IMG/VR virus record: IMGVR_UViG_3300007542_000232
Span: 1 to 21,396 of that record
DNA length: 21,396 nucleotides
Direction: 5' to 3' (one strand)
From: a virus
Notes under the pieces: model-generated
What the model saw: only the letters and a program-made list of their open reading frames with translations
Database searches by the model: none
What the model was told of the DNA's origin: nothing
Part shown: piece by piece, positions 1-18,499 of the stretch
Numbering within the stretch: position 1 is the first letter of the stretch
How the letters are laid out: each line of letters starts with the position of its first letter
Translations under genes and position numbers: made by a program

Positions 1-1383
1 ATGATAGGTGAGGTTAACTCATGCGGCTCAAAGGTCTTTGTATTACGTGAGCGAATGAAGTCACTAAGACAATCTATCTATGAGGGCATCGAGAAGAACG
101 TCAAGAAGCTATCATTAGCAGGCTTTAGACCGTTACCTAGTCACTGGGAGATAACACATAAGAACGGTGGCAAATTTGCATTTGGCGGCATGCAAAACAT
201 CCTAGACATGAAATCACTGTTTGAATTTAAGTTTTTCTTGATTGAAGAAGCGGCTAGAACATCACTGCAAACATTAGATGTATTAGGTCCAACACTTCGA
301 GGCATAGAAGGCGCTGAAATGTGGCTACTATGGAATCCTGAAAGCTCAAATGATGCAATGAGCATAGAATATATTACACCATTCCAAGCAGACCTAGATA
401 AATACGGTTACTATGAGGACGATTACCATATTATTATTAAACTTGGCTACAGGGATAATCCGTGGTTCGAGCATGACTCATCACTAAGAGACGAATTAGC
501 CAAAGACCAGCAAAAGCTATCAGAGGGCAGAATGTCACAAGCACGATTCAATCATATATGGGAAGGCGCATTTAACGATGATGTTGAAAACTCTGTAATC
601 ATCGCTGACTGGTTTGATGCTTGTATCGATGCCCATAAGAAACTAGGCTTTGAAGGTAGAGGCGCAAGAGTGGTAGGCCATGACCCATCTGATGTGGGTA
701 AAGATGCTAAGGGATATGCGGCTAGACACGGTGTAGTATTTGAGGATGTTAAAGAGATTGAGGCAGAAGATGCCAATAGAGGCTTTGATGTAGCAGTCAG
801 AGAAGCCAGGGCTTATGCGGTAGATTCGTTCGGGTGGGATTGCGATGGTATGGGCGCATTGTTACGTGACCAAGCTGCAAGGGCATTTGCTGGCACTAAG
901 ATTCATACGTTTATGTATAAGGGTTCAGAATCTTGTAATATGCCAAAGGCTTTATTCAAAGAGTCAGACGACTATAACCTGAAAGGCGAGCTTAGAAATG
1001 AAGATGTATTCAAAAATAAGAAAGCGCAAAATATTATATCGGTTGCTCAAAGATGCAAAAGAACATACGAGGCGGTAAAGCTTGGCATGTATCACGACCC
1101 AGATACATTAGTCAGTTTCGATAGCTCTAAAATATCACCTCCAATGATGGCCAAATTAAGGTCAGAGTGTTGCAGGATGCCATTGAAGCAATCAGATAAG
1201 ATAGCGTTTTACACTAAAGAAGAAATGCGCAAGGGTATTGTACAGAAAGACGGAAGCAGGCTAGTCATACCATCACCTAACCTTTTTGATGCGGTTGTGC
1301 TTTCTTTCGATAATAGCGGTATAATAAACCATAATCCTATAAATACGTCTCATAGACCGCGCCCAATCAGGACAATAAAATAA
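1..1383 (+). CDS. terL: Terminase large subunit, Sf6 gp2-like (5' partial)
   Basis: This is the ATP-driven motor and nuclease that packages phage DNA through the portal. The visible part has 460 codons. Residues 78-84 (FFLIEEA) form the Walker B strand with its catalytic acid, and LLWNPES (109-115) fits the coupling motif. The nuclease domain shows HDPSDVGKDAKGYA (227-240, first catalytic Asp), DCDGMG (280-285, second) and IPSPNLFDAV (423-432, third). Phrases such as DAHKKLG, GSES and DVFKNKKAQ closely resemble the Sf6 gp2 terminase. The Walker A loop is missing, and by comparison with Sf6 gp2 about 40 N-terminal residues lie upstream of the window. The ATG at base 1 is therefore most likely an internal Met. 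The stop overlaps the portal start as TAATG, which suggests translational coupling. Confidence 0.95.
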   Translation: MIGEVNSCGSKVFVLRERMKSLRQSIYEGIEKNVKKLSLAGFRPLPSHWEITHKNGGKFAFGGMQNILDMKSLFEFKFFLIEEAARTSLQTLDVLGPTLRGIEGAEMWLLWNPESSNDAMSIEYITPFQADLDKYGYYEDDYHIIIKLGYRDNPWFEHDSSLRDELAKDQQKLSEGRMSQARFNHIWEGAFNDDVENSVIIADWFDACIDAHKKLGFEGRGARVVGHDPSDVGKDAKGYAARHGVVFEDVKEIEAEDANRGFDVAVREARAYAVDSFGWDCDGMGALLRDQAARAFAGTKIHTFMYKGSESCNMPKALFKESDDYNLKGELRNEDVFKNKKAQNIISVAQRCKRTYEAVKLGMYHDPDTLVSFDSSKISPPMMAKLRSECCRMPLKQSDKIAFYTKEEMRKGIVQKDGSRLVIPSPNLFDAVVLSFDNSGIINHNPINTSHRPRPIRTIK

Positions 1384-3509
1384 TGCTGACACATGAACAG
1401 ATACTAAAATACTTCGATAAAGACTACACCCACGGTCAAGAAGTAAGAGAGAAAGCAGCTAATGATATGGTGTTCGCTTGGGTGACGCAGTGGGATGATG
1501 ATACATTAGCAGGCAGTGACTTAGAGTATCGAGGCGAGTTTAATATTATTCGCAAGGCTGTAAGGCACATACTCACTGACCTAGTTATCAATGAAGTACA
1601 AGTTGACTTTGAACCCGATGAAGGAACAGACGACAAAGCTAGCGACATACTTGACGGCATCTACCGCGCCAATATGCGTTACAACGTATCACAAGAGGCC
1701 AAGAAGAATGCAAGCCAAGAGGCTGTTGCTTGTGGTGTTGGCGCGTGGGAATTAGTTGCTGAATATAAAAACCCTTGGAGCGAGAAACAACACTTAGTTA
1801 GACGTCCAATCTACGAAGCTAATAACTGTGTATTTTGGGACAACAACGCCAAGTTACTAGACAAGTCAGACGCAACTAGAGTCACGATACTAGAATCATT
1901 CAGTGAAGACGCTTACGAGGCGTTAAAGGATGACTTAGGTATTGAGGATGATGGCTCAAACTTTGCCATGCCTTACACTGACTTATCTTTCCAGTGGGTA
2001 ACAGGCAGCAAACAAATTTATGTGGGTAAGTTTTACCATCGTGAGATTAAAACGTGTAAATATTACGTCTATGAGGATGCCTTCGGTACACGTCGAGAAG
2101 TAGAGTCTGATGATTTAGACGAGCAAGAAGACTCACTTGTTGACGGTGGCTTTGATTTTGTCGAAGAAAAGAAGAAGAAAGAATGGCGCATCACTCGCTA
2201 CTTGGTGAGTGGTGAGAAGATATTAGAAACTGCTGAAATAGCCGGTGAACATATCCCTGTAGTTCCTCAATACGGCGAAAGAGCTTTTGTTGATGGTGTG
2301 GAATGGTATGAAGGTGTTGTAAGGCTAGCTAAAGACCCACAAAGACTGCGCAACTTCCAGTTATCATACTTAGCTACTATTGTTGCAAGAAGCCCAAGAG
2401 AAAAGCCTATATTCGGTGATGAGCAAATTGCTGGTTATGAAGACATGTACGAAATGTCAGGTGCAGAAAATAACCTGCCCTACGTTAAGATGCGTACACT
2501 TGATAGTCAAGGCAATCCATTACCCATGGGGCCGTTAGGATATATTAAAGCACCAGAAGTACCACCAGCATTAATGGCATCAATCTCAGAGTCACGGGCT
2601 GCTGTGGATGATGTAGCTAGTGTTGGTCTAATGCCCGACATAGCTGACACTGATTTGTCTGGTAAGGCTATAAATTCTATTCAGAAACGTTTAGACATGC
2701 AGTCATACACCTACCAAGATAATCACAAGTACGCAATGCGTAGAGATGGTGAGATATTCGCGTCAATGTTTAGCGCAATAATGGATGAGGAGCAGGAAAT
2801 AACATTAGTTAACTATGATGGTTCACGTAAGAAAGAAACCATCAACAAACAAAAGTTTGACTATGTTAAAGATACTGCTTACACAGAGAACGATACAACT
2901 AAGATGCGCTTCAATGTTCATGCGACGATTGGCCCTGCATTTGAATCAGTACGCGAACAACAGATGGAGCAGTTGAAAGAATTAATTATGAGTCAACCTC
3001 CAGGCTCACCAACTCACACTATGTTATTAAACAAATTCCTAACCTTGACTCCGGGCGCTGGCTTTGAAGATATACGCGACTTTGCCAACCTACAACTTGT
3101 ATTGTCTGGCGTTAGAAAGCCTGAAACTGAGGAAGAAATGGCAGCACTTAAACAAGCACAAGAAGCACCTAAAGAGCCTGATGCTAATATGGTACTTGCT
3201 CAAGCTGAGCAGATTAAAGGTCAAGCTGATATTATGGCTCAAGAGAATAAAAAACTTGAGTTACAACTGAAAATGGCTGACTTACAAGAGAAGTACAGCG
3301 GTGAGAATAAAAAGAGAGACTCAGAGACAGCGGTCAATATTGCCAAGGTACAGCAAGGTGAGCGTAAACTAAGCTTGGATGAGCAGAAAGTTATGAATGA
3401 CTTTGCACTTAGGTTAGCAGAGCTTGAGCAAACTTATGGCAGACAGCTGGACGGTGAGGTTAAAAGCAACATGCTAGTATTTGACCCCTTGATAGGTGAT
3501 TTCGCATAA
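1383..3509 (+). CDS. Portal protein, P22 gp1-like
   Basis: The portal is the dodecameric ring at one capsid vertex through which DNA enters and leaves; it nucleates head assembly. The product has 708 residues, against about 725 for P22 gp1, and sits directly after the large terminase as expected. The N-terminal half is mixed alpha/beta with many acidic residues. From about residue 590 to 695 the chain is rich in Gln, Lys, Glu and Ala (for example LAQAEQIKGQADIM), a long helical stretch that matches the position of the C-terminal helical barrel of P22-type portals. The start is set by the TAATG overlap with terminase, and the stop overlaps the next start in the same way. Family assignment rests on length, gene order and general pattern. 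Confidence 0.9.
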   Translation: MLTHEQILKYFDKDYTHGQEVREKAANDMVFAWVTQWDDDTLAGSDLEYRGEFNIIRKAVRHILTDLVINEVQVDFEPDEGTDDKASDILDGIYRANMRYNVSQEAKKNASQEAVACGVGAWELVAEYKNPWSEKQHLVRRPIYEANNCVFWDNNAKLLDKSDATRVTILESFSEDAYEALKDDLGIEDDGSNFAMPYTDLSFQWVTGSKQIYVGKFYHREIKTCKYYVYEDAFGTRREVESDDLDEQEDSLVDGGFDFVEEKKKKEWRITRYLVSGEKILETAEIAGEHIPVVPQYGERAFVDGVEWYEGVVRLAKDPQRLRNFQLSYLATIVARSPREKPIFGDEQIAGYEDMYEMSGAENNLPYVKMRTLDSQGNPLPMGPLGYIKAPEVPPALMASISESRAAVDDVASVGLMPDIADTDLSGKAINSIQKRLDMQSYTYQDNHKYAMRRDGEIFASMFSAIMDEEQEITLVNYDGSRKKETINKQKFDYVKDTAYTENDTTKMRFNVHATIGPAFESVREQQMEQLKELIMSQPPGSPTHTMLLNKFLTLTPGAGFEDIRDFANLQLVLSGVRKPETEEEMAALKQAQEAPKEPDANMVLAQAEQIKGQADIMAQENKKLELQLKMADLQEKYSGENKKRDSETAVNIAKVQQGERKLSLDEQKVMNDFALRLAELEQTYGRQLDGEVKSNMLVFDPLIGDFA

Positions 3510-4690
3510 TGCCAGTAGTAGAGATAAAAGGCACAGGCCAGCAAGCTAAATTCCCTGATGATATGCCTATAGATAGCATCAAGGCTTTCCTACGCAAGAA
3601 GTTTGGTTCACCTAGCGATGCACTAAGGCCGCTAGAGCCAGTAGCGCAAGAGGTTAAGCCCGGCTTAGCTGAACGTGCTGGACAAGGCTTATCTGATTTA
3701 CTCTACGACAATAACATTATATCTGATAGATATGGCGCACAAAGAATAGGCGGCAACTTATCAAGCATTGGCGAAGCATTACCTTTTACTGGTGATGCTG
3801 CTGCTGGTGATGAATTTGGTAGGGCTGCTGCTCAAGGTGATAAGTCAGGTATGTTGTTGGCTGGGTTAGGTGCTATACCTATTGCTGGTGATGCATTAAA
3901 GAAAGGCACTAAATGGTATCATGGAACAAATAAACAATTTGACGATTTTAATACAGACACAACTTTTATAACTGATAATGAAAAGCTTGCGTATATTTAT
4001 TCAAGGCAAGACCTAGGGCAGAAAGGGAGGGTTTTTGAGGTTGAGCATGATGTTCCTGATGATTTAATTTTCGACACAAATAAACCTGAGCATAGGAAAA
4101 TATTCAACGATAAGTTTTATAGGAAATGGGGAGGAGGTGGCCCGCTGTCGGACAAAGGATATCCAGATTGGACAGATGCAGAAGATTTTAAGCAGTTTTT
4201 TGAGGAGTCTGGACTGCCATTCAAAGGGGTTAAAATACAAGAGCCGCAAGGAGATATATCATTAGCTATAACTGATGTTGATATGGTAAGACCTGCCAAG
4301 GGTAGCGGTAAGGCTATGAGTGATGGAGGGATTAAATCTATCGAATCGCCTTTTAAGTCTACATTCCCAAATAGTGAAAGACTCACAACAGGAAATGCAC
4401 ACATAGACATTGCAGAATCTAAATGGTCGCCAACTAAGTATAGTATTGTTGAGTTCCTAACTGGTGAGGCTGATAGGGGGAAAGGATACGGCAGCAAGTT
4501 AATGGATGAGGCAATAGCAAAATATGGAAGTGAATTATCAGGTGCATTTTCATCAAAAGAATCGATAGCTATGGCTTATAAAAAAGGGTTTAGGCCATTA
4601 GCAGAGGAATATCAAGGAATGAGTGTAGGGGAGTTGATACAAGCTGGCAAAAATGGTTCAGTTACCATGTCATATAGCGGAAAGAACTAA
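3509..4690 (+). CDS. Putative virion cargo protein: ADP-ribosyltransferase-like plus GNAT-like domains
   Basis: A 393-residue protein with no counterpart between portal and scaffold in P22 or Sf6. Residues 1-32 (MPVVEIKGTG, then FPDDMPIDSIKAFL) resemble the short N-terminal segment seen on many phage internal or ejected proteins. Residues 50-132 are Gly/Ala-rich. Residues 136-262 look like an ADP-ribosyltransferase of the polyvalent-protein type: WYHGTNKQFDDF (136-147), TFITDNEKLAYIYS (152-165) and a closing strand SLAITDVDMVRP (251-262). Residues 295-364 look like a GNAT acetyltransferase, with RGKGYGSKLMDEAI (323-336) as the acetyl-CoA loop and SIAMAYKKGF (352-361) as motif B. Substrates are unknown. 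The third catalytic ART residue cannot be placed by eye. Glycine codons switch from GGC/GGT to GGA/GGG at about residue 134, suggesting the enzyme part was acquired separately. Packaging or injection is an inference. Confidence 0.72.
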   Translation: MPVVEIKGTGQQAKFPDDMPIDSIKAFLRKKFGSPSDALRPLEPVAQEVKPGLAERAGQGLSDLLYDNNIISDRYGAQRIGGNLSSIGEALPFTGDAAAGDEFGRAAAQGDKSGMLLAGLGAIPIAGDALKKGTKWYHGTNKQFDDFNTDTTFITDNEKLAYIYSRQDLGQKGRVFEVEHDVPDDLIFDTNKPEHRKIFNDKFYRKWGGGGPLSDKGYPDWTDAEDFKQFFEESGLPFKGVKIQEPQGDISLAITDVDMVRPAKGSGKAMSDGGIKSIESPFKSTFPNSERLTTGNAHIDIAESKWSPTKYSIVEFLTGEADRGKGYGSKLMDEAIAKYGSELSGAFSSKESIAMAYKKGFRPLAEEYQGMSVGELIQAGKNGSVTMSYSGKN

Positions 4691-4872
4691 TCCAAATATT
4701 CCCAGTTAGTAACATCTAGCTGGGATTCTATTTCAATACCTGTTTGCTTGGAGTAAAACCCATCACCAAACCTTCCAGCTACAAATATACATGGCGACAT
4801 TGATTCACTATTCCCAGTTACCTTGTCAACTCCAAACACTTTCAAAAGTTTATATTCAGTCGGGTTATTCAT
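4687..4872 (-). CDS. Small hypothetical protein, 61 aa
   Basis: Last gene of a minus-strand cassette. The 61-residue product begins MNNPTEYKLLKVFGVDKVTG and has a hydrophobic-aromatic middle (CIFVAGRFGDGFY, residues 28-40) and an acidic end (WEYLD). I recognise no family. The ATG at 4872 overlaps the end of the upstream 58-aa gene by 8 bases, and no clear Shine-Dalgarno is seen, so translation is probably coupled. An in-frame TTG at 4884 is a less likely start. The stop overlaps the stop of the convergent ART-GNAT gene by 4 bases, so the two transcription units collide here with no visible terminator between them. Confidence 0.6.
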   Translation of the reverse strand: MNNPTEYKLLKVFGVDKVTGNSESMSPCIFVAGRFGDGFYSKQTGIEIESQLDVTNWEYLD

Positions 4873-5041
4873 TTGAATTATCAACCATTAGAGCTGCTTT
4901 TCTACATAACATAGGACTAATACTAGGCATAGCATACATAAATAAATCATATACAGCGGGGGTGATAAATATTAAACCATCATTTACATAGTAATCATCT
5001 GTTTTTATTTTTGCATCTTTAATCATATCTAAATTAGCCAT
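4865..5041 (-). CDS. Small hypothetical protein, 58 aa
   Basis: Product of 58 residues starting MANLDMIKDAKIKTDDYYVN and ending MVDNSNE. The middle (DGLIFITPAVYDLFMYAM, residues 21-38) is hydrophobic and aromatic but interrupted by Pro, Asp and Tyr, so a membrane segment is unlikely. I recognise no family. On the minus strand the ATG is preceded by AGGGTGATTT, a good ribosome site that overlaps the TGA stop of the upstream 41-aa membrane gene. That arrangement supports real translation as part of a compact operon. The 3' end overlaps the 61-aa gene by 8 bases. Confidence 0.6.
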   Translation of the reverse strand: MANLDMIKDAKIKTDDYYVNDGLIFITPAVYDLFMYAMPSISPMLCRKAALMVDNSNE

Positions 5042-5044
5042 AAA

Positions 5045-5170
5045 TCACCCTACTGCAAAACAAGCAGCCAACAATATAAACACAAAATACCCCACAATAG
5101 CCCAAGCTGCACCAGTTGGACCGTTAATGAGAAAGCCGATAGATGCAACGAATAGTAGTTCGATTATCAT
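5045..5170 (-). CDS. Small membrane hairpin protein, 41 aa
   Basis: A 41-residue, almost wholly hydrophobic protein. Residues 1-15 (MIIELLFVASIGFLI) and about 23-40 (AWAIVGYFVFILLAACFA) can each enter or span the membrane, joined by a short NGPTGA turn, so a two-helix inner-membrane hairpin is likely. The ATG at 5170 is preceded on the minus strand by GAGG with an 8-base spacing, embedded in the last codons of the 64-aa gene. There is no signal-peptidase site or charged tail. It could be a small holin-like, exclusion or membrane-modifying protein, but the sequence does not decide. The gene is short enough to be missed by most ORF cut-offs. Confidence 0.6.
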   Translation of the reverse strand: MIIELLFVASIGFLINGPTGAAWAIVGYFVFILLAACFAVG

Positions 5171-5173
5171 AAT

Positions 5174-5368
5174 TTAAACCTCATGCCTATAAACCTCATC
5201 AAGAGAAGAAAATGCAGCTTTTTTTGCTTCTTTTACTGCGTTCCCAAGGTCTGACAAATCCTTGTGGCTAAACATAATACGGTTTCCTCGCTCATCTTCT
5301 ATTGTTATGTGTACTGGGTGCCCACCTTCCCATACTTCCAAATCGAATTTACCTATAGTTTTAAACAT
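5174..5368 (-). CDS. Small hypothetical protein, 64 aa, beta-rich then helical
   Basis: Product of 64 residues. The first half (FDLEVWEGGHPVHITIEDE, residues 8-26) reads as a beta hairpin with conserved-looking WEGGHPVHI. The second half (DLSDLGNAVKEAKKAAFSSL, residues 37-56) reads as a soluble amphipathic helix. I recognise no named family; the look is that of small phage or plasmid accessory proteins. The ATG at 5368 follows GTGAGGGTTT on the minus strand, a good Shine-Dalgarno that overlaps the TGA of the upstream zinc-ribbon gene. Only three bases separate its stop from the next start. Confidence 0.68.
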   Translation of the reverse strand: MFKTIGKFDLEVWEGGHPVHITIEDERGNRIMFSHKDLSDLGNAVKEAKKAAFSSLDEVYRHEV

Positions 5369-5374
5369 AAACCC

Positions 5375-5542
5375 TCACTTAATAGTCGGACACTTGCCAA
5401 CTGTATTACCTAAATATCTAGCAGCACTAACAACTTTATTAGCAGTGATGCCACACTTGCATGTCACACTAGATTGACTCGAATCAACCAGCTTTTCAAA
5501 TACGCCACATTTAGGGCATTTGAAATCGTGTAGTATTTTCAT
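5375..5542 (-). CDS. FmdB-like zinc-ribbon protein, 55 aa
   Basis: First gene of the minus-strand cassette. The 55-residue product begins MKILHDFKCPKCGVFEKLVD and carries CPKCG (9-13) and CKCG (28-31), four cysteines spaced like a zinc ribbon. The opening (short start, Phe-x-Cys-x-x-Cys-Gly, then FE) is the pattern of the FmdB-type small zinc ribbons often found in phages. The role is unknown; nucleic-acid or protein binding is typical of such folds. A further Cys (C51) lies near the C-terminus. The start at 5542 is preceded by AGGTGA on the minus strand. The TGA stop lies inside the ribosome site of the next gene, which argues for one polycistronic message. Confidence 0.72.
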   Translation of the reverse strand: MKILHDFKCPKCGVFEKLVDSSQSSVTCKCGITANKVVSAARYLGNTVGKCPTIK

Positions 5543-5686: not shown

Positions 5687-6706
5687 GTGACAGATACATT
5701 ATCTCTGAAACAGCTAAAAGAGAAAAACGCTTTAGAAGATGGTCAGACACCGGTTGAAGCCAAGCCCAAACAAGAAGTTAAGCTTGATGAATATGTGGAA
5801 GAAAAACCAGAACTAAAAGCGGATGAAGTTGGAACTGAAATCGAACATGATGACGATGTAAGTGATGCGGATTCAGAATCCTGGAAGCAACCCGAAGAAG
5901 CAGAGGCTTCGGAAAATGAGCAGAGTGGTTTTAAACCAAATTCAGCAATTGGTAAGGTTCGCAAACAACTAAGAGCGAAAATCAATGAGCGTGACGAGGA
6001 ATTAGAATTACTCAAGGCGAAGATACAGAAGCTAGAAAGCGGTAGCGGTCAAGCACCAAGGCAAGCACAACAGCGGCCAAAGCTTGAGCAATACGACTAC
6101 GACGAGGACAAGTATAACGATGCGCTTGATGCGTACTACGAAAGCAAAATTGATAGCCGAGTAGCTAACACACAACAATCGCAGAGTAAGAAAGCCCAAG
6201 AAGAAGCGCTTAAACAAGCTAAAGAATCAGCGTTAAATGCTCACTATATCAGGGCTGAAAAATTGGTTGAATCTGGCAGTGTATCCGAGGATGAATACCA
6301 CTCAGCAGATAAGTCATTACGGATGAGCTTAGAAAAAGCCTTTCCTAACAATGGCGAATCGATTACTGATGACCTGATAGTCACTTTAAACGATTTAGGC
6401 GATGGTAGCGAAAAATTACTGTACCAACTAGGTATTAACAGTGCAAAGCGTGACCAGTTTATAGCTAAGCTAAAGACTAGCCCGTATAGCGCAGTTGCTT
6501 ACTTGGGTATGTTACATGCCACTATCAATAGCCCGAATAAACGTAAATCTTCGGCACCTAAGCCAGCTACGCAGATTAAAGGCGAGTCAGGCGGTAAGGC
6601 AGAAAATCTCTACCAGCAATGGAAGAAATTAGATGGCGATCCGTCTAGAATTAGCATAAAACGCAAAGCCAAGGCATCAGGTGTTGATACTAGCAACTGG
6701 AATTAA
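5687..6706 (+). CDS. Capsid scaffolding protein, P22 gp8-like
   Basis: The scaffold directs coat assembly into a procapsid and leaves before or during packaging. The product has 339 residues (P22 gp8 has 303) and lies directly upstream of coat, as in P22. It is highly charged: residues 1-80 are strongly acidic, residues 95-115 (INERDEELELLKAKIQKLES) read as a coiled coil, and residues 120-190 are rich in Gln, Lys and Tyr. The last 50 residues are basic, with two short helices ending near the C-terminus, which fits the coat-binding helix-turn-helix of P22-type scaffolds. The start is GTG at 5687, chosen because GAGGA (5674-5678) lies 8 bases upstream and no ATG fits. The assignment rests on position and composition, since these proteins diverge quickly. 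Confidence 0.85.
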   Translation: MTDTLSLKQLKEKNALEDGQTPVEAKPKQEVKLDEYVEEKPELKADEVGTEIEHDDDVSDADSESWKQPEEAEASENEQSGFKPNSAIGKVRKQLRAKINERDEELELLKAKIQKLESGSGQAPRQAQQRPKLEQYDYDEDKYNDALDAYYESKIDSRVANTQQSQSKKAQEEALKQAKESALNAHYIRAEKLVESGSVSEDEYHSADKSLRMSLEKAFPNNGESITDDLIVTLNDLGDGSEKLLYQLGINSAKRDQFIAKLKTSPYSAVAYLGMLHATINSPNKRKSSAPKPATQIKGESGGKAENLYQQWKKLDGDPSRISIKRKAKASGVDTSNWN

Positions 6707-6708
6707 CT

Positions 6709-7974
6709 ATGAGTACTTTATCAGCAGGTAAAATCGCAGAAGTAATGTTTGAAGCACAGCTTGAAACTTATGAAGCGCAAACGTCTTTAGTAGACAAAAC
6801 AATGGTATTTAACCCATCTAGTGGTGATATGCGCAACAGTGGCAACGTGTTATGGCGTCCAGTGCAGCAGCATGCACCAATCTTAACTGGCTGGGATTTA
6901 ACAGGCCAAGAGCAAGAGATTATCGAAGAAACCTACCCAGCGTACTTAGGTACTCCTAAAAACGACTTAGTTAAACAGCGTATCGATGACTTGCGCGACA
7001 TTACGCAGTGGAAACGACGTGGTGAAGCATCTGGTAAGCAACAAGCTACTGAGTTAAACACTGGCTTAGCTAACTTAATTAAAAACACTGGCTCACTGTA
7101 CTACCGTAATAATAGTGCATCTGGCTTTACATTCATCTCACAAGCTCAGACTATTATGAATGAGCGCGAGCGTATGGATACTGGCCGTTGCTTCTTTATG
7201 AATGACCGCGATGCAAACGTATACGCACAAGACTTAGCTGCACGTCAAACTGTACAAGGTCGCCCTGCTGATGCGTGGAATGCTGGTCAGATTACGCAAA
7301 ACACTGCTGGCTTTGATGTTTATACTGCATCATTCTTGCCAGTTATTACTGGTGGCGCATTATCTACTACTACCACAGCGGCTACTTCATTCGCTCCTGT
7401 AGGTGGTTCAGTTAACGTAGCTACTGGCACAGTGACTAACGTTGATTATCGCTCTGCTGTAATCCCTGTTACCGCATCTGGCTCATTTGCCGTAGGTGAT
7501 AAGGTTACATTCGCTGGCGTTAACTCAGTAGGCGTATCAAGCAAAAACGATACAGGTCAGTTAATGACTTTCACTATCGTAAGCAAGCCTAACGCGACAA
7601 GTGTAGAAATCTGGCCTAAGCCTATCGCTAAAAACGATGGTGCATTGACCGCTACGCAGAAAGCTTATGCAAACGTGCTAAACGTTATTGCAAGCGGTGT
7701 TGCTATGACTCGCTTGAACACTGATGCAAGTGCTAAATCTAACATCTTCTTTGATAAAGACTCAGTCGAGATTTTAGGTGGTGATGTACCAATGGAGCTA
7801 ATGAAAGAGTTTTCAGGTATGAAAGTTATCTCTGAAACCTTAGCCAACGGCTTGAAAATGTACATGGTGTATGACTCTGAATTATCAGGCTTAACACTGC
7901 GTTATCGTACATTTACCTGGTACGGTCTAACCAACAAAGACCCACAGCGCAACGGTGTAGCAGTACGTTACTAA
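6709..7974 (+). CDS. Major capsid (coat) protein, P22 gp5-like
   Basis: The 421-residue protein matches P22 coat (430 residues) in size, position and pattern, including an N-terminal start of the MSTLSAGKIAEVMFEAQLET type and a block VLWRPVQQHAPILTGWDLTG (47-66). Residues about 214-335 (beta-rich, many Thr, Ser, Val and Gly, for example AVGDKVTFAGVNSVG) sit where P22 coat carries its inserted telokin-like I-domain, which guides folding and capsid size. The C-terminal part (LRYRTFTWYGLTNKDPQRNG, 397-416) completes the HK97-type core. It starts two bases after the scaffold stop. The ribosome site is only a weak GGA, unusual for the most abundant virion protein, so coupling to scaffold translation may matter. 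A strong terminator follows. Confidence 0.93.
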   Translation: MSTLSAGKIAEVMFEAQLETYEAQTSLVDKTMVFNPSSGDMRNSGNVLWRPVQQHAPILTGWDLTGQEQEIIEETYPAYLGTPKNDLVKQRIDDLRDITQWKRRGEASGKQQATELNTGLANLIKNTGSLYYRNNSASGFTFISQAQTIMNERERMDTGRCFFMNDRDANVYAQDLAARQTVQGRPADAWNAGQITQNTAGFDVYTASFLPVITGGALSTTTTAATSFAPVGGSVNVATGTVTNVDYRSAVIPVTASGSFAVGDKVTFAGVNSVGVSSKNDTGQLMTFTIVSKPNATSVEIWPKPIAKNDGALTATQKAYANVLNVIASGVAMTRLNTDASAKSNIFFDKDSVEILGGDVPMELMKEFSGMKVISETLANGLKMYMVYDSELSGLTLRYRTFTWYGLTNKDPQRNGVAVRY

Positions 7975-10959: not shown

Positions 10960-11257
10960 TCTACCTACTTCACAGCAATCATTAACGACCTATGCAGAGA
11001 TTAAAGGTAAGGCGTTCAAAGATGACTATGCGGCCGAAGATTACTTACAGCTAAAGCGTGACTTAATCAACCTGCAACGCGCTTATATCGACCTGATAGG
11101 CTCAATTTCTGATGGCGATTACAGCCCCATTATCGGCACAGGCAGCCCAGAGGGTGTAGTAACAGCTAATTACAGCTTGATTTACATTGACTCAGTGCTA
11201 CCAACTCAATACTACAACCCAGTTTTTGGAGCAAGCACAGGATGGATTGTACTGTAA
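10949..11257 (+). CDS. Small tail protein at the gp26 (needle) position, 102 aa
   Basis: In P22 the next gene after gp10 encodes the 233-residue trimeric tail needle. Here the gene in that place gives only 102 residues. Residues 20-55 read as a helix (DDYAAEDYLQLKRDLINLQR, then AYIDLIGSI). Residues 65-99 carry SPEGVVTANYSLIYID and YYNPVFGASTGW, a Gly/aromatic motif that commonly ends phage tail tip and fibre proteins. A short coiled coil ending in a small knob would make a much reduced needle, but this is inferred from position and shape only. It overlaps the gp10-like gene by 11 bases and the next gene by 16 bases. GGGG lies at a usable distance before the ATG. Confidence 0.6.
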   Translation: MPLNLPTSQQSLTTYAEIKGKAFKDDYAAEDYLQLKRDLINLQRAYIDLIGSISDGDYSPIIGTGSPEGVVTANYSLIYIDSVLPTQYYNPVFGASTGWIVL

Positions 11258-11592
11258 TAACAGAGCAGGAATTTTTTAGTATCTGTGGTGATATTGAGCC
11301 ATTATCTGAATATTATAAGTGCAACGGTGTCGTATTTTCAGCAGTCAAAAAGGGCGAGGCTTTACGCGTCCACATCGGCTGTAAACGAGAGAATATGAAG
11401 CATCTTAGGTCTAGCTGTCAGACATTCATTAAAAACATGTTTTCCCACTACGATTGGTGTAAAATGCTAATAGCAACAGTGGATGTAAAAAATAAATCAG
11501 TCTTTAACCTTTGCTTAAAACTTGGCTTTGTTGATCAAGGCGTTTATAAGTTTGAAGGTGGAGACGCTAACATAATGGTGATAGAACGATGA
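11242..11592 (+). CDS. GNAT-like protein at the gp14 position, 116 aa
   Basis: The 116-residue product ends with a clear GNAT-like half: DVKNKSVFNLCLKLGFVDQG (81-100) followed by a strand with NIMVIER. The classical acetyl-CoA loop R-x-x-G-x-G/A is not evident (KRENMKHLRSSCQTF, 48-62, occupies that place), so it may bind a different ligand or be inactive. P22 has gene 14, linked to head assembly or DNA transfer, at this same position before gene 7. I recall small GNAT-like proteins at this site in related phages, but the equivalence is positional. It is cysteine-rich for a virion protein (seven Cys). The stop overlaps the next ATG as ATGA. Confidence 0.65.
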   Translation: MDCTVITEQEFFSICGDIEPLSEYYKCNGVVFSAVKKGEALRVHIGCKRENMKHLRSSCQTFIKNMFSHYDWCKMLIATVDVKNKSVFNLCLKLGFVDQGVYKFEGGDANIMVIER

Positions 11593-17227: not shown

Positions 17228-18499
17228 ATGGTTAGGTATAACGGCTCAGCAATAAACAAGTTTATAACTAAAAGCACTGGAACGGCTGGCGCTGGAACAT
17301 TAATTACAATCAAGGTTACTGGTGTTGGCTCACTTGCTACTTTATATAATAACGTTGGCGCGCCGCTATCTAACCCTGTGGCAGCGGACTCTAATGGCAA
17401 CTTCTTTTTTTATGTTGATCCGGGCCATTACGATTTAGTTTTTAACGCTGGAATGCCTAGTGAAGTCACTATTTTTGATGAGCCAATCGTTGACGTGCCA
17501 GAAGATGATGGCACTTTAGTTAAAAACGTTGTAATACTCACAAGCGGCCAAAACATTGTTACATTTAGTAGTATCGTTGCAAGTGGCGCGGCTGTTTACT
17601 TAAACGGTACTGGCGCTGATGATGGAAGATTGCACGAAGATGCTGACTATATTTTACGCCCTGATATTGATGCTTATACGATTGAGCTAACAGCTACTTA
17701 TGCAGCGGGAAGTACAATCACAGCGTATAACTACTCAAGCGCTGGTGGCATTTCTTATAATCTATCTAATGCAGATTTGAAGATTGATGTTATTGCTCAC
17801 AGAGGATTTAAAAACAGTTTCCCACAAAATACCATGCTGGCATTCACTAGCGCTATTAGGAGAGGCGCAACAGCTCTTGAGTGCGATGTACAGATTACAT
17901 CGGATGGTGTCCCTGTGGTTTTCCACGATGATACTGTGGATGCTTTAACTAATGGCACTGGAACAATAGCAAGTTTAACATTGGCTCAAGTTCAATCTTT
18001 AACAATAGATGAAGTCGCTGGGACTGCATTCAGTGACACTAAAATACCTACATTTGCTGAACTGTTAAGATATTGCAAAGGTGCTGGACTTCGGATATTC
18101 CCAGAGATTAAAAAGTATCGATCACAGACTGACATTAGCTTAATGATTGACGATGTTATTAATGCAAGCATGGAAGGTCAATCTTACTTTTCATCATTCG
18201 CTTATTCTGATGTATCATACTTTAGAACGCTAAACAGTCAGATAGTTTGTGGATTGCTTGGCAGTTCAACTAACCCGATAGTGTACGAGGCGAACATTAA
18301 TGACTTATCAGCTTTGGGTAATTCGATTATAATATGGAATTATCCAGCATTGCTTGTTCAGCCAAACATTGTGCTTTATGCAAGATCTAAAGGCGTTGAT
18401 GTGGCAGCATGGACAGTTAACGACAATACAGATGCTAAAAAAGTAATGAGAGTGGGCGTGACTAAAATAATTACAGACGTAGCGTTGGAGGTTTTATGA
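17228..18499 (+). CDS. Tail protein with glycerophosphodiester phosphodiesterase (GDPD) domain
   Basis: A 423-residue protein with an anchor part and an enzyme part. Residues 1-90 (ATLYNNVGAPLSNPVAADSN, then FFFYVDPGHYDLVF) are a module common on phage fibres; residues 95-180 are a second beta domain. Residues 187-423 are a GDPD TIM barrel: IAHRGFKNSFPQNTMLAF (189-206), GATALECDVQITSDGVPVVF (213-232), HDD (233-235), EIKKY (293-297) and AAWTVNDNTD near the end. The expected residues H191, R192, E218, D220 and H233 are present, so the site looks active with a divalent metal. It likely cuts glycerol-phosphate linkages in a capsule, O-antigen or teichoic-acid-like polymer on the host surface. The role as a depolymerase is inferred from its place in the fibre block. 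The stop overlaps the next start as ATGA. Confidence 0.88.
   Translation: MVRYNGSAINKFITKSTGTAGAGTLITIKVTGVGSLATLYNNVGAPLSNPVAADSNGNFFFYVDPGHYDLVFNAGMPSEVTIFDEPIVDVPEDDGTLVKNVVILTSGQNIVTFSSIVASGAAVYLNGTGADDGRLHEDADYILRPDIDAYTIELTATYAAGSTITAYNYSSAGGISYNLSNADLKIDVIAHRGFKNSFPQNTMLAFTSAIRRGATALECDVQITSDGVPVVFHDDTVDALTNGTGTIASLTLAQVQSLTIDEVAGTAFSDTKIPTFAELLRYCKGAGLRIFPEIKKYRSQTDISLMIDDVINASMEGQSYFSSFAYSDVSYFRTLNSQIVCGLLGSSTNPIVYEANINDLSALGNSIIIWNYPALLVQPNIVLYARSKGVDVAAWTVNDNTDAKKVMRVGVTKIITDVALEVL

What the first reader, a model, noticed from the sequence alone, without database searches (positions are those of the whole stretch)
3509..4690. Portal-adjacent ADP-ribosyltransferase plus acetyltransferase fusion
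The sequence shows an ART-like block (WYHGTNKQFDDF, TFITDNEKLAYIYS, SLAITDVDMVRP) followed by a GNAT-like block (RGKGYGSKLMDEAI, SIAMAYKKGF) behind a virion-type N-terminus (FPDDMPIDSIKAFL). ART and GNAT domains side by side are known in phage and plasmid polyvalent proteins, usually much longer. A compact two-enzyme protein inside the portal-scaffold interval of a P22-type phage is unusual. It could be packaged and injected to modify host RNA polymerase, ribosomes or defence proteins in the first minutes. Target, activity and packaging are all inference.
Basis: partly seen in the sequence, partly recalled or inferred. Interest (0 to 1): 0.8.

Follow-up and report, generated by a model that had tools for sequence, protein, structure and literature searches.

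The report
Phage two-domain effector beside the portal
A P22-like phage carries, coupled to its portal gene, a small protein with an ADP-ribosyltransferase-type fold and an acetyltransferase-type domain, probably made with the virus particle to act on the next host cell; the pairing is known from giant phage proteins, but this short form, in which the first enzyme has lost family-invariant active-site residues, has not been described in the papers we could search.

Summary
The ORF at 3509-4690 (393 aa) is real. It overlaps the portal stop by one base (TAATG), has a Shine-Dalgarno site, and is identical in three IMG/VR contigs. Residues 131-267 take an ART fold: AlphaFold pLDDT 83, and nearly all of the top structural matches are ART-superfamily proteins. 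Residues 275-393 are a compact GNAT with an intact acetyl-CoA loop, homologous to solo ORFs of HRDY3-type jumbo phages.

ART-GNAT neighbours in injected "polyvalent" proteins are already published, as are ARTs beside portals, so the kind is known. New here: (1) The compact form, with an N-terminus like that of another portal-slot ART protein. (2) The portal-scaffold interval is a variable cargo slot (5 bp to 2.4 kb in 62 relatives). Five other contigs carry ART-type genes straight after a P22-type portal, one followed by a convergent macrodomain gene. (3) The ART lacks the family-invariant Asp (Lys here), has Phe for Tyr and keeps the His, so its transferase activity is doubtful; the GNAT may be the working enzyme.

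Packaging, targets and activity are inferred. Most likely a portal-coupled, virion-packaged host-modifying effector: a new variant of a known kind.

The parts
1383..3509 (+). P22-type portal gene, upstream partner in the coupled reading unit
   Evidence: phrog_156 E 1.6e-115; 44-46% identity to portals of Vibrio phage 1.275.O and Pseudomonas phage AH02
3494..3499 (+). Shine-Dalgarno-like AGGTGA, 9 nt before the ATG; start overlaps the portal stop as TAATG
   Evidence: sequence; the same kind of overlap (TGATG) in L144
3509..4690 (+). 393-aa cargo protein: N-terminal segment + ART-fold domain + compact GNAT
3509..3604 (+). N-terminal segment (res. 1-32), similar to the L141 portal-slot ART protein
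   Evidence: 4/2000 shuffles vs L141; L141 vs ejection-protein N-termini of H6/1 and PVA1 1/5000 each; not significant directly vs ejection proteins
3899..4309 (+). ART-fold domain (res. 131-267): His138 kept; Phe153 at the strand-2 Tyr; Lys239 at the invariant Asp of strand 5; Ser251 at the variable Glu position
   Evidence: AF2 pLDDT 83.3, pTM 0.75; Foldseek/VIA ART hits; columns
4331..4687 (+). compact GNAT domain (res. 275-393) with RGKGYG acetyl-CoA loop
   Evidence: PF13508 E 0.0016; 37-39% over 59 aa to HRDY3-type solo ORFs, E 1e-7 with the domain alone; A2 profile's best PDB hits are acetyltransferases, E 0.011
4687..5542 (-). five tightly packed small ORFs (4687-4884, 4865-5041, 5045-5170, 5174-5368, 5375-5542) filling the rest of the slot, convergent with the cargo gene; moron-like, possible immunity or partner genes, no family found for those searched
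5687..6706 (+). scaffolding protein, right border of the slot
   Evidence: phrog_648 E 4e-12
6709..7974 (+). P22-type coat protein
   Evidence: phrog_283 E 2.8e-47

Best explanation
A compact, portal-coupled cargo effector. It is translated with the portal protein from the late operon. Its N-terminal segment likely places it in the procapsid or with the ejection proteins, so that it enters the next host with the DNA. There the GNAT domain (acetyl-CoA loop intact) most likely acylates a host protein, and the ART-fold domain, which has lost the family's invariant Asp, either works weakly with another acid (Asp249 is near) or serves to bind NAD/ADP-ribose or the target. Shown: ORF, overlap with the portal, ART fold, GNAT homology, slot. 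Inferred: late expression (from position), packaging, injection, acetylation, target.
For: ORF and coupling. ART fold; the best viral-structure match is a phage protein annotated as N-acetyltransferase-domain protein, i.e. itself probably ART plus GNAT. GNAT homologues. ART directly followed by GNAT in Tunturi_5 ORF321 near a head-tail connector gene; GNAT near the ART in about 4 of 80 IMG/VR ART-PolyVal segments. ART genes in the same slot of other P22-type contigs. Related solo ART of phage LIMEstone1 (ORF173) found in virions by mass spectrometry, though by one peptide. Published: ART-GNAT neighbours in polyvalent proteins inferred to be packaged (PMC5512222); ARTs beside portal/terminase genes inferred to be packaged (PMC9503650).
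Against: No proteomic data for this phage. The N-terminal link to ejection proteins is indirect. Family-invariant ART residues are missing, so it need not be an enzyme pair. Both Pfam matches are under cut-off. The slot also holds HNH- and GIY-YIG-like ORFs and reverse-strand small genes, so position alone does not show a virion role.
Confidence: 0.52

Rival explanations
1. It is not packaged: it is made late in the producing cell (or in a lysogen) and acts there, e.g. against a defence system or a competing phage, as the ART anti-CRISPR AcrIF11 does.
For: AcrIF11 (6kyf) is among the best structural matches; it is an ART that blocks CRISPR (PMC12421852). The slot also carries reverse-strand, moron-like small genes.
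Against: The gene is coupled to the portal and so probably tied to late expression, which is late for anti-CRISPR work; AcrIF11 has no such N-terminal segment or GNAT.
Confidence: 0.24
2. Toxin module with immunity: the ART-fold protein is a toxin and a convergent neighbour is its antidote.
For: In L141 a macrodomain gene (PF01661, 80.7 bits), a kind that can remove ADP-ribose, lies convergent right after the slot ART. In this window five small reverse-strand ORFs follow the gene.
Against: No macrodomain in the window's slot; the ORF gives no PADLOC match and the three small ORFs searched give none beyond weak zinc-ribbon hits; L207/L209 have the ART but hardly any room for a partner before the scaffold; the window ART lacks the invariant Asp.
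Confidence: 0.1
3. A structural or assembly accessory of the portal or scaffold built from dead enzyme domains.
For: Position and coupling; degenerate ART; a Z 7.0 structural match inside the cyanophage A4 pre-ejectosome chain 9k3a_B, in the range that the tool calls middling.
Against: Most P22-type relatives join portal to scaffold in under 300 bp (33 of 62), so it is dispensable for assembly; GNAT loop intact.
Confidence: 0.1

Closest known systems
ART-PolyVal / polyvalent-protein ARTs (PF18760, Tox-ART-HYD2 clade; Iyer et al. 2017)
   Same: ART fold, YHGT strand-1 motif, place beside portal genes, GNAT neighbour in the same polypeptide
   Different: Under Pfam cut-off; Lys for the invariant Asp and Phe for Tyr; no FK.WFG.SKVVD lead-in; 393 aa against mostly 1000-2000 aa or more in the set collected here
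Tunturi_5 ORF321 (XOB77764.1), ART-GNAT-ART polyvalent protein near a head-tail connector gene
   Same: ART followed directly by GNAT, next to virion genes
   Different: 1362 aa with three ART stretches, 2H-type and SprT-like domains; ARTs score high (163.6 bits)
HRDY3-type jumbo-phage solo GNAT and solo ART ORFs (XDJ15075.1; L009, L015)
   Same: Closest sequence relative of the GNAT; in G002 a PF18760 ART (E 4e-35) lies on the same strand about 2 kb away
   Different: Separate small genes with a shared MEM.LALA leader, not a fusion; no portal seen beside them
L141 (IMGVR 3300002231_000016) portal-slot ART protein
   Same: P22-type portal upstream, scaffold downstream, similar N-terminus, WYHGT ART
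   Different: No GNAT; keeps the Asp; followed by a convergent macrodomain gene
Phage T4 Alt
   Same: Would work alike if packaged: virion-delivered host-protein modifier (PMC5512222)
   Different: R-S-E clade ART (PMC5512222); packaging of Alt is shown, here inferred
AcrIF11 (6kyf)
   Same: Small phage ART fold, among the top structural matches
   Different: Needs its acidic residue for activity (PMC12421852); stand-alone anti-CRISPR, not portal-coupled

Membership tests
ART superfamily (fold) | ART fold: split beta-sandwich, His in strand 1 | tested here: met
   AF2 pLDDT 83.3 / pTM 0.75, seven strands; top-three PDB Foldseek hits MbcT (two chains) and AcrIF11 (E 4e-3 to 4e-2); VIA Z up to 7.0, rows nearly all ARTs; 40 viral matches E<=0.001. 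His138 present.
ART-PolyVal (PF18760) | Score over the curated cut-off | tested here: not met
   13.4 bits against 31.2; profile-profile 90.6% against 49.8% for the best of 300 shuffles
ART-PolyVal (PF18760) | H-Y-D active site: His strand 1, Tyr strand 2, Asp strand 5 (Iyer 2017) | tested here: not met
   His138 kept; Phe153 for Tyr (Phe in 20 of 80 family members); Lys239 for Asp (Asp in 80 of 80)
GNAT superfamily | Motif A, [RQ]-x-x-G-x-[GA], acetyl-CoA loop | tested here: met
   RGKGYG, shared as RG.G.G with the solo homologues
GNAT superfamily | Score over a Pfam GNAT cut-off | tested here: not met
   PF13508 19.2 of 27, PF00583 17.0 of 20.7 bits on the segment; homologues also below (20.2 and 19.5 bits)
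GNAT superfamily | GNAT fold | tested here: inconclusive
   only a low-confidence model (block means pLDDT about 51-72 for res. 331-393, GNAT-like helix/strand order); no model jobs left
Phage polyvalent proteins | Two or more effector-type domains in one polypeptide encoded by a phage with a portal-terminase system | tested here: met
   two domains, coupled to the portal
Phage polyvalent proteins | Packaged in the virion and injected | not testable with these tools
   needs virion proteomics
P22-type ejection proteins (N-terminal segment) | LPNG-VP[DE]G-type N-terminus | tested here: inconclusive
   not significant directly (550 or more of 2000 shuffles as good); linked only through L141
Known anti-phage defence systems (PADLOC) | Match to a PADLOC model | tested here: not met
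   no match at E<=1

The most novel reading that the evidence does not exclude
P22-type podophages keep an exchangeable, portal-coupled cargo slot for injected NAD-related effectors; in this phage the ART has been turned into a non-catalytic NAD/ADP-ribose- or target-binding module that directs a working acetyltransferase.
Probability: 0.14. Interest if true: 0.72.

Novelty: new variant of a known kind. Interest (0 to 1): 0.45.

Why it matters
Polyvalent phage effectors have mostly been described as very large proteins, hard to test. A 393-aa protein coupled to the portal gene is small enough to express, purify and delete, and could show directly whether ART and GNAT domains of such proteins act together on a host target in the first minutes. 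The portal-scaffold slot also gives a cheap place to look for further injected effectors: any ORF starting at the portal stop of a P22-type phage is a candidate, and the convergent macrodomain in one relative suggests what some of them do.

Tried and rejected
First AlphaFold run (3-row alignment of the whole protein) gave pLDDT 37 and was not used for fold claims. A full-length 30-row alignment placed ART C-termini inside the GNAT and was dropped. tblastn of ART segment and N-terminus against annotated phages found no relative; plasmids gave nothing significant. NCBIfam and PADLOC: no relevant match. Two bacterial genome scans (GNAT profile; portal profile) gave no relative and one Pseudomonadales MAG contig of the same length and match position as IMG/VR locus L152, so no host is assigned. 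One DNA pattern was off by one base and wasted a scan. Window N-terminus against ejection-protein N-termini directly: not significant. The 1333-aa ORF between the adaptor and stabilization genes of Vibrio phage 1.275 was considered as a counterpart but has no ART or GNAT match. The cyanophage A4 pre-ejectosome match (Z 7.0) was not taken as proof: the range is middling, ART sequence profiles do not find that chain, and no paper on it is held. 'Conserved P22 gene' rejected: the slot is short in most relatives.

Full report
What is there. The ORF at 3509-4690 + is as described: ATG start, 393 aa. Its start overlaps the portal stop as TAATG, nine bases after AGGTGA. Two other IMG/VR contigs from other metagenomes carry it without a single difference, although one contig differs from the window at 6 of 6882 positions. 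The window is a 21.4-kb virus record with a P22-type late region: terminase, portal, scaffold, coat, gp10, gp7/gp20-type ejection proteins, tail genes.

Domains. Single-sequence evidence is thin: GNAT PF13508 E 0.0016 and ART-PolyVal PF18760 E 0.14 on isolated segments, both under cut-off. Three lines raise it. (a) GNAT: the closest relatives are solo 129-aa ORFs of HRDY3-type jumbo phages (39% over 59 aa, E 1e-7 with the domain; 30 invariant columns over four sequences); a profile of these finds mainly acetyltransferases in the PDB, at best E 0.011. (b) ART: I collected 80 ART-PolyVal domains from IMG/VR (all match PF18760) and compared the window segment with their profile: 90.6% probability, score 43.7, against 49.8% and 31.6 for the best of 300 shuffles; the N-terminal and C-terminal parts of the protein give 0.2 and 1.9%. 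(c) A 31-row alignment of ART segments gave an AlphaFold model with pLDDT 83.3 and pTM 0.75. Its best PDB matches are MbcT, AcrIF11, Tpt1/KptA and tankyrases; the second look lists AcrIF11, diphtheria toxin, ParT, PARP and tankyrase chains at Z 5.7-6.7, and a cyanophage A4 pre-ejectosome chain at Z 7.0. The best viral match is a phage protein annotated as N-acetyltransferase-domain protein (E 3e-8).

Active sites. In the 80 ART-PolyVal domains His (YHG) and the Asp of the [YHF]DG motif are invariant; the GxYF position is Tyr in 50 and Phe in 20; the Glu position of E[YF]VVF varies. The model puts the DG motif at the start of the fifth strand, which fits the H-Y-D site (His strand 1, Tyr strand 2, Asp strand 5) of Iyer et al. 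2017 (PMC5512222). The window has His138, Phe153, Lys239 and Ser251. A small group of short-loop relatives (L129, L139, L140, L147) also lacks the Asp. In AcrIF11 the acidic residue is needed, though its identity may differ between homologues (PMC12421852); Asp249 lies close by here, so activity is doubtful, not excluded. The GNAT keeps RGKGYG.

The slot. An exact DNA scan for WYHGT...F[DE] turned up phages in which an ART gene follows a P22-type portal. L144: coat 56%, gp10 42%, scaffold 37%, portal 44% identical to the window; the ART ORF starts at the portal stop (TGATG) and a scaffold lies 1.8 kb further. L134: the ART ORF starts 3 bases after the portal stop; its ART is shortened and lacks the DG strand. 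L141: portal, ART (35.2 bits, over cut-off), a convergent macrodomain gene (80.7 bits), then scaffold. A survey of 80 portal loci added L207 and L209 (near-identical), ART 68.9 bits (L207), where an ATG follows the portal stop after 13 bases. Of 62 loci with a scaffold found, 33 have less than 300 bp between portal and scaffold and 29 have 300 bp or more, up to 2426 bp. Other fillers read as an HNH-like ORF (L206), a GIY-YIG-like ORF (L208; both by eye) and small reverse-strand genes. So the interval is a variable cargo slot, and ART genes coupled to the portal are rare (3 of 80, about 2 independent) but recurrent. In the window the rest of the slot holds five packed reverse-strand ORFs, most with ribosome-binding-like sequences.

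The N-terminus. Residues 1-32 resemble the N-terminus of the L141 slot protein (4 of 2000 shuffles as good), which resembles the N-termini of gp16-position proteins annotated as ejection or DNA transfer proteins in phages H6/1 and PVA1 (1 of 5000 each). The direct comparison with those is not significant. This is a lead for virion placement, not proof.

Precedent. ART-GNAT neighbours in polyvalent proteins are published (PMC5512222); so are ARTs beside portal and terminase genes, inferred to be packaged (PMC9503650). I found one more case among annotated phages: Tunturi_5 ORF321, ART-GNAT-ART near a head-tail connector gene. A solo ART of LIMEstone1 (47 bits) was found in virions by mass spectrometry, by a single peptide. 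A phage GNAT that shuts down host transcription is known (Rac of phiKMV-like phages, PMC7552054).

Verdict. A portal-coupled, compact ART-fold plus GNAT protein, most likely a packaged host-modifying effector whose ART has lost family-invariant residues. New variant of a known kind. Domain content about 0.9 certain; packaging about 0.55; GNAT active about 0.65; ART active about 0.35 (my estimates).

Noticed in passing
L004, L008, L009, L015 (HRDY3-type jumbo phages): Arrays of small genes, among them a PF18760 ART and the GNAT relative, begin with a shared leader MEM.[LI]A[LV]A (16 exact DNA matches in three records, none for the reversed control pattern). Looks like a common N-terminal targeting or processed signal on a set of candidate effectors.
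   Followed up: partly
L141:7321-7899 -: Macrodomain gene (PF01661, 80.7 bits) convergent with a portal-slot ART gene: a possible writer-eraser or toxin-antidote pair inside a phage head operon.
   Followed up: partly
window 4687-5542 -: Five packed reverse-strand ORFs of 41-65 aa, most with ribosome-binding-like sequences; one has a Cys4 zinc-ribbon pattern, one looks like a membrane peptide; no family found for those searched.
   Followed up: partly
window 11242-11592 +: 116-aa ORF before gp7 with weak GNAT/acyltransferase matches (phrog_17333 E 5e-4, phrog_4470 E 0.01), with a homologue in L144 at a similar place: a possible second GNAT-like protein in the ejection block.
   Followed up: no
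window 17228-18499 +: Tail-region protein with a glycerophosphodiester phosphodiesterase domain (PF03009, 146.8 bits), perhaps a receptor- or glycan-degrading enzyme.
   Followed up: no
L012:205-4206 (Vibrio phage 1.275.O): 1333-aa protein of unknown family inserted between the adaptor and stabilization genes of the window's nearest annotated relative.
   Followed up: no
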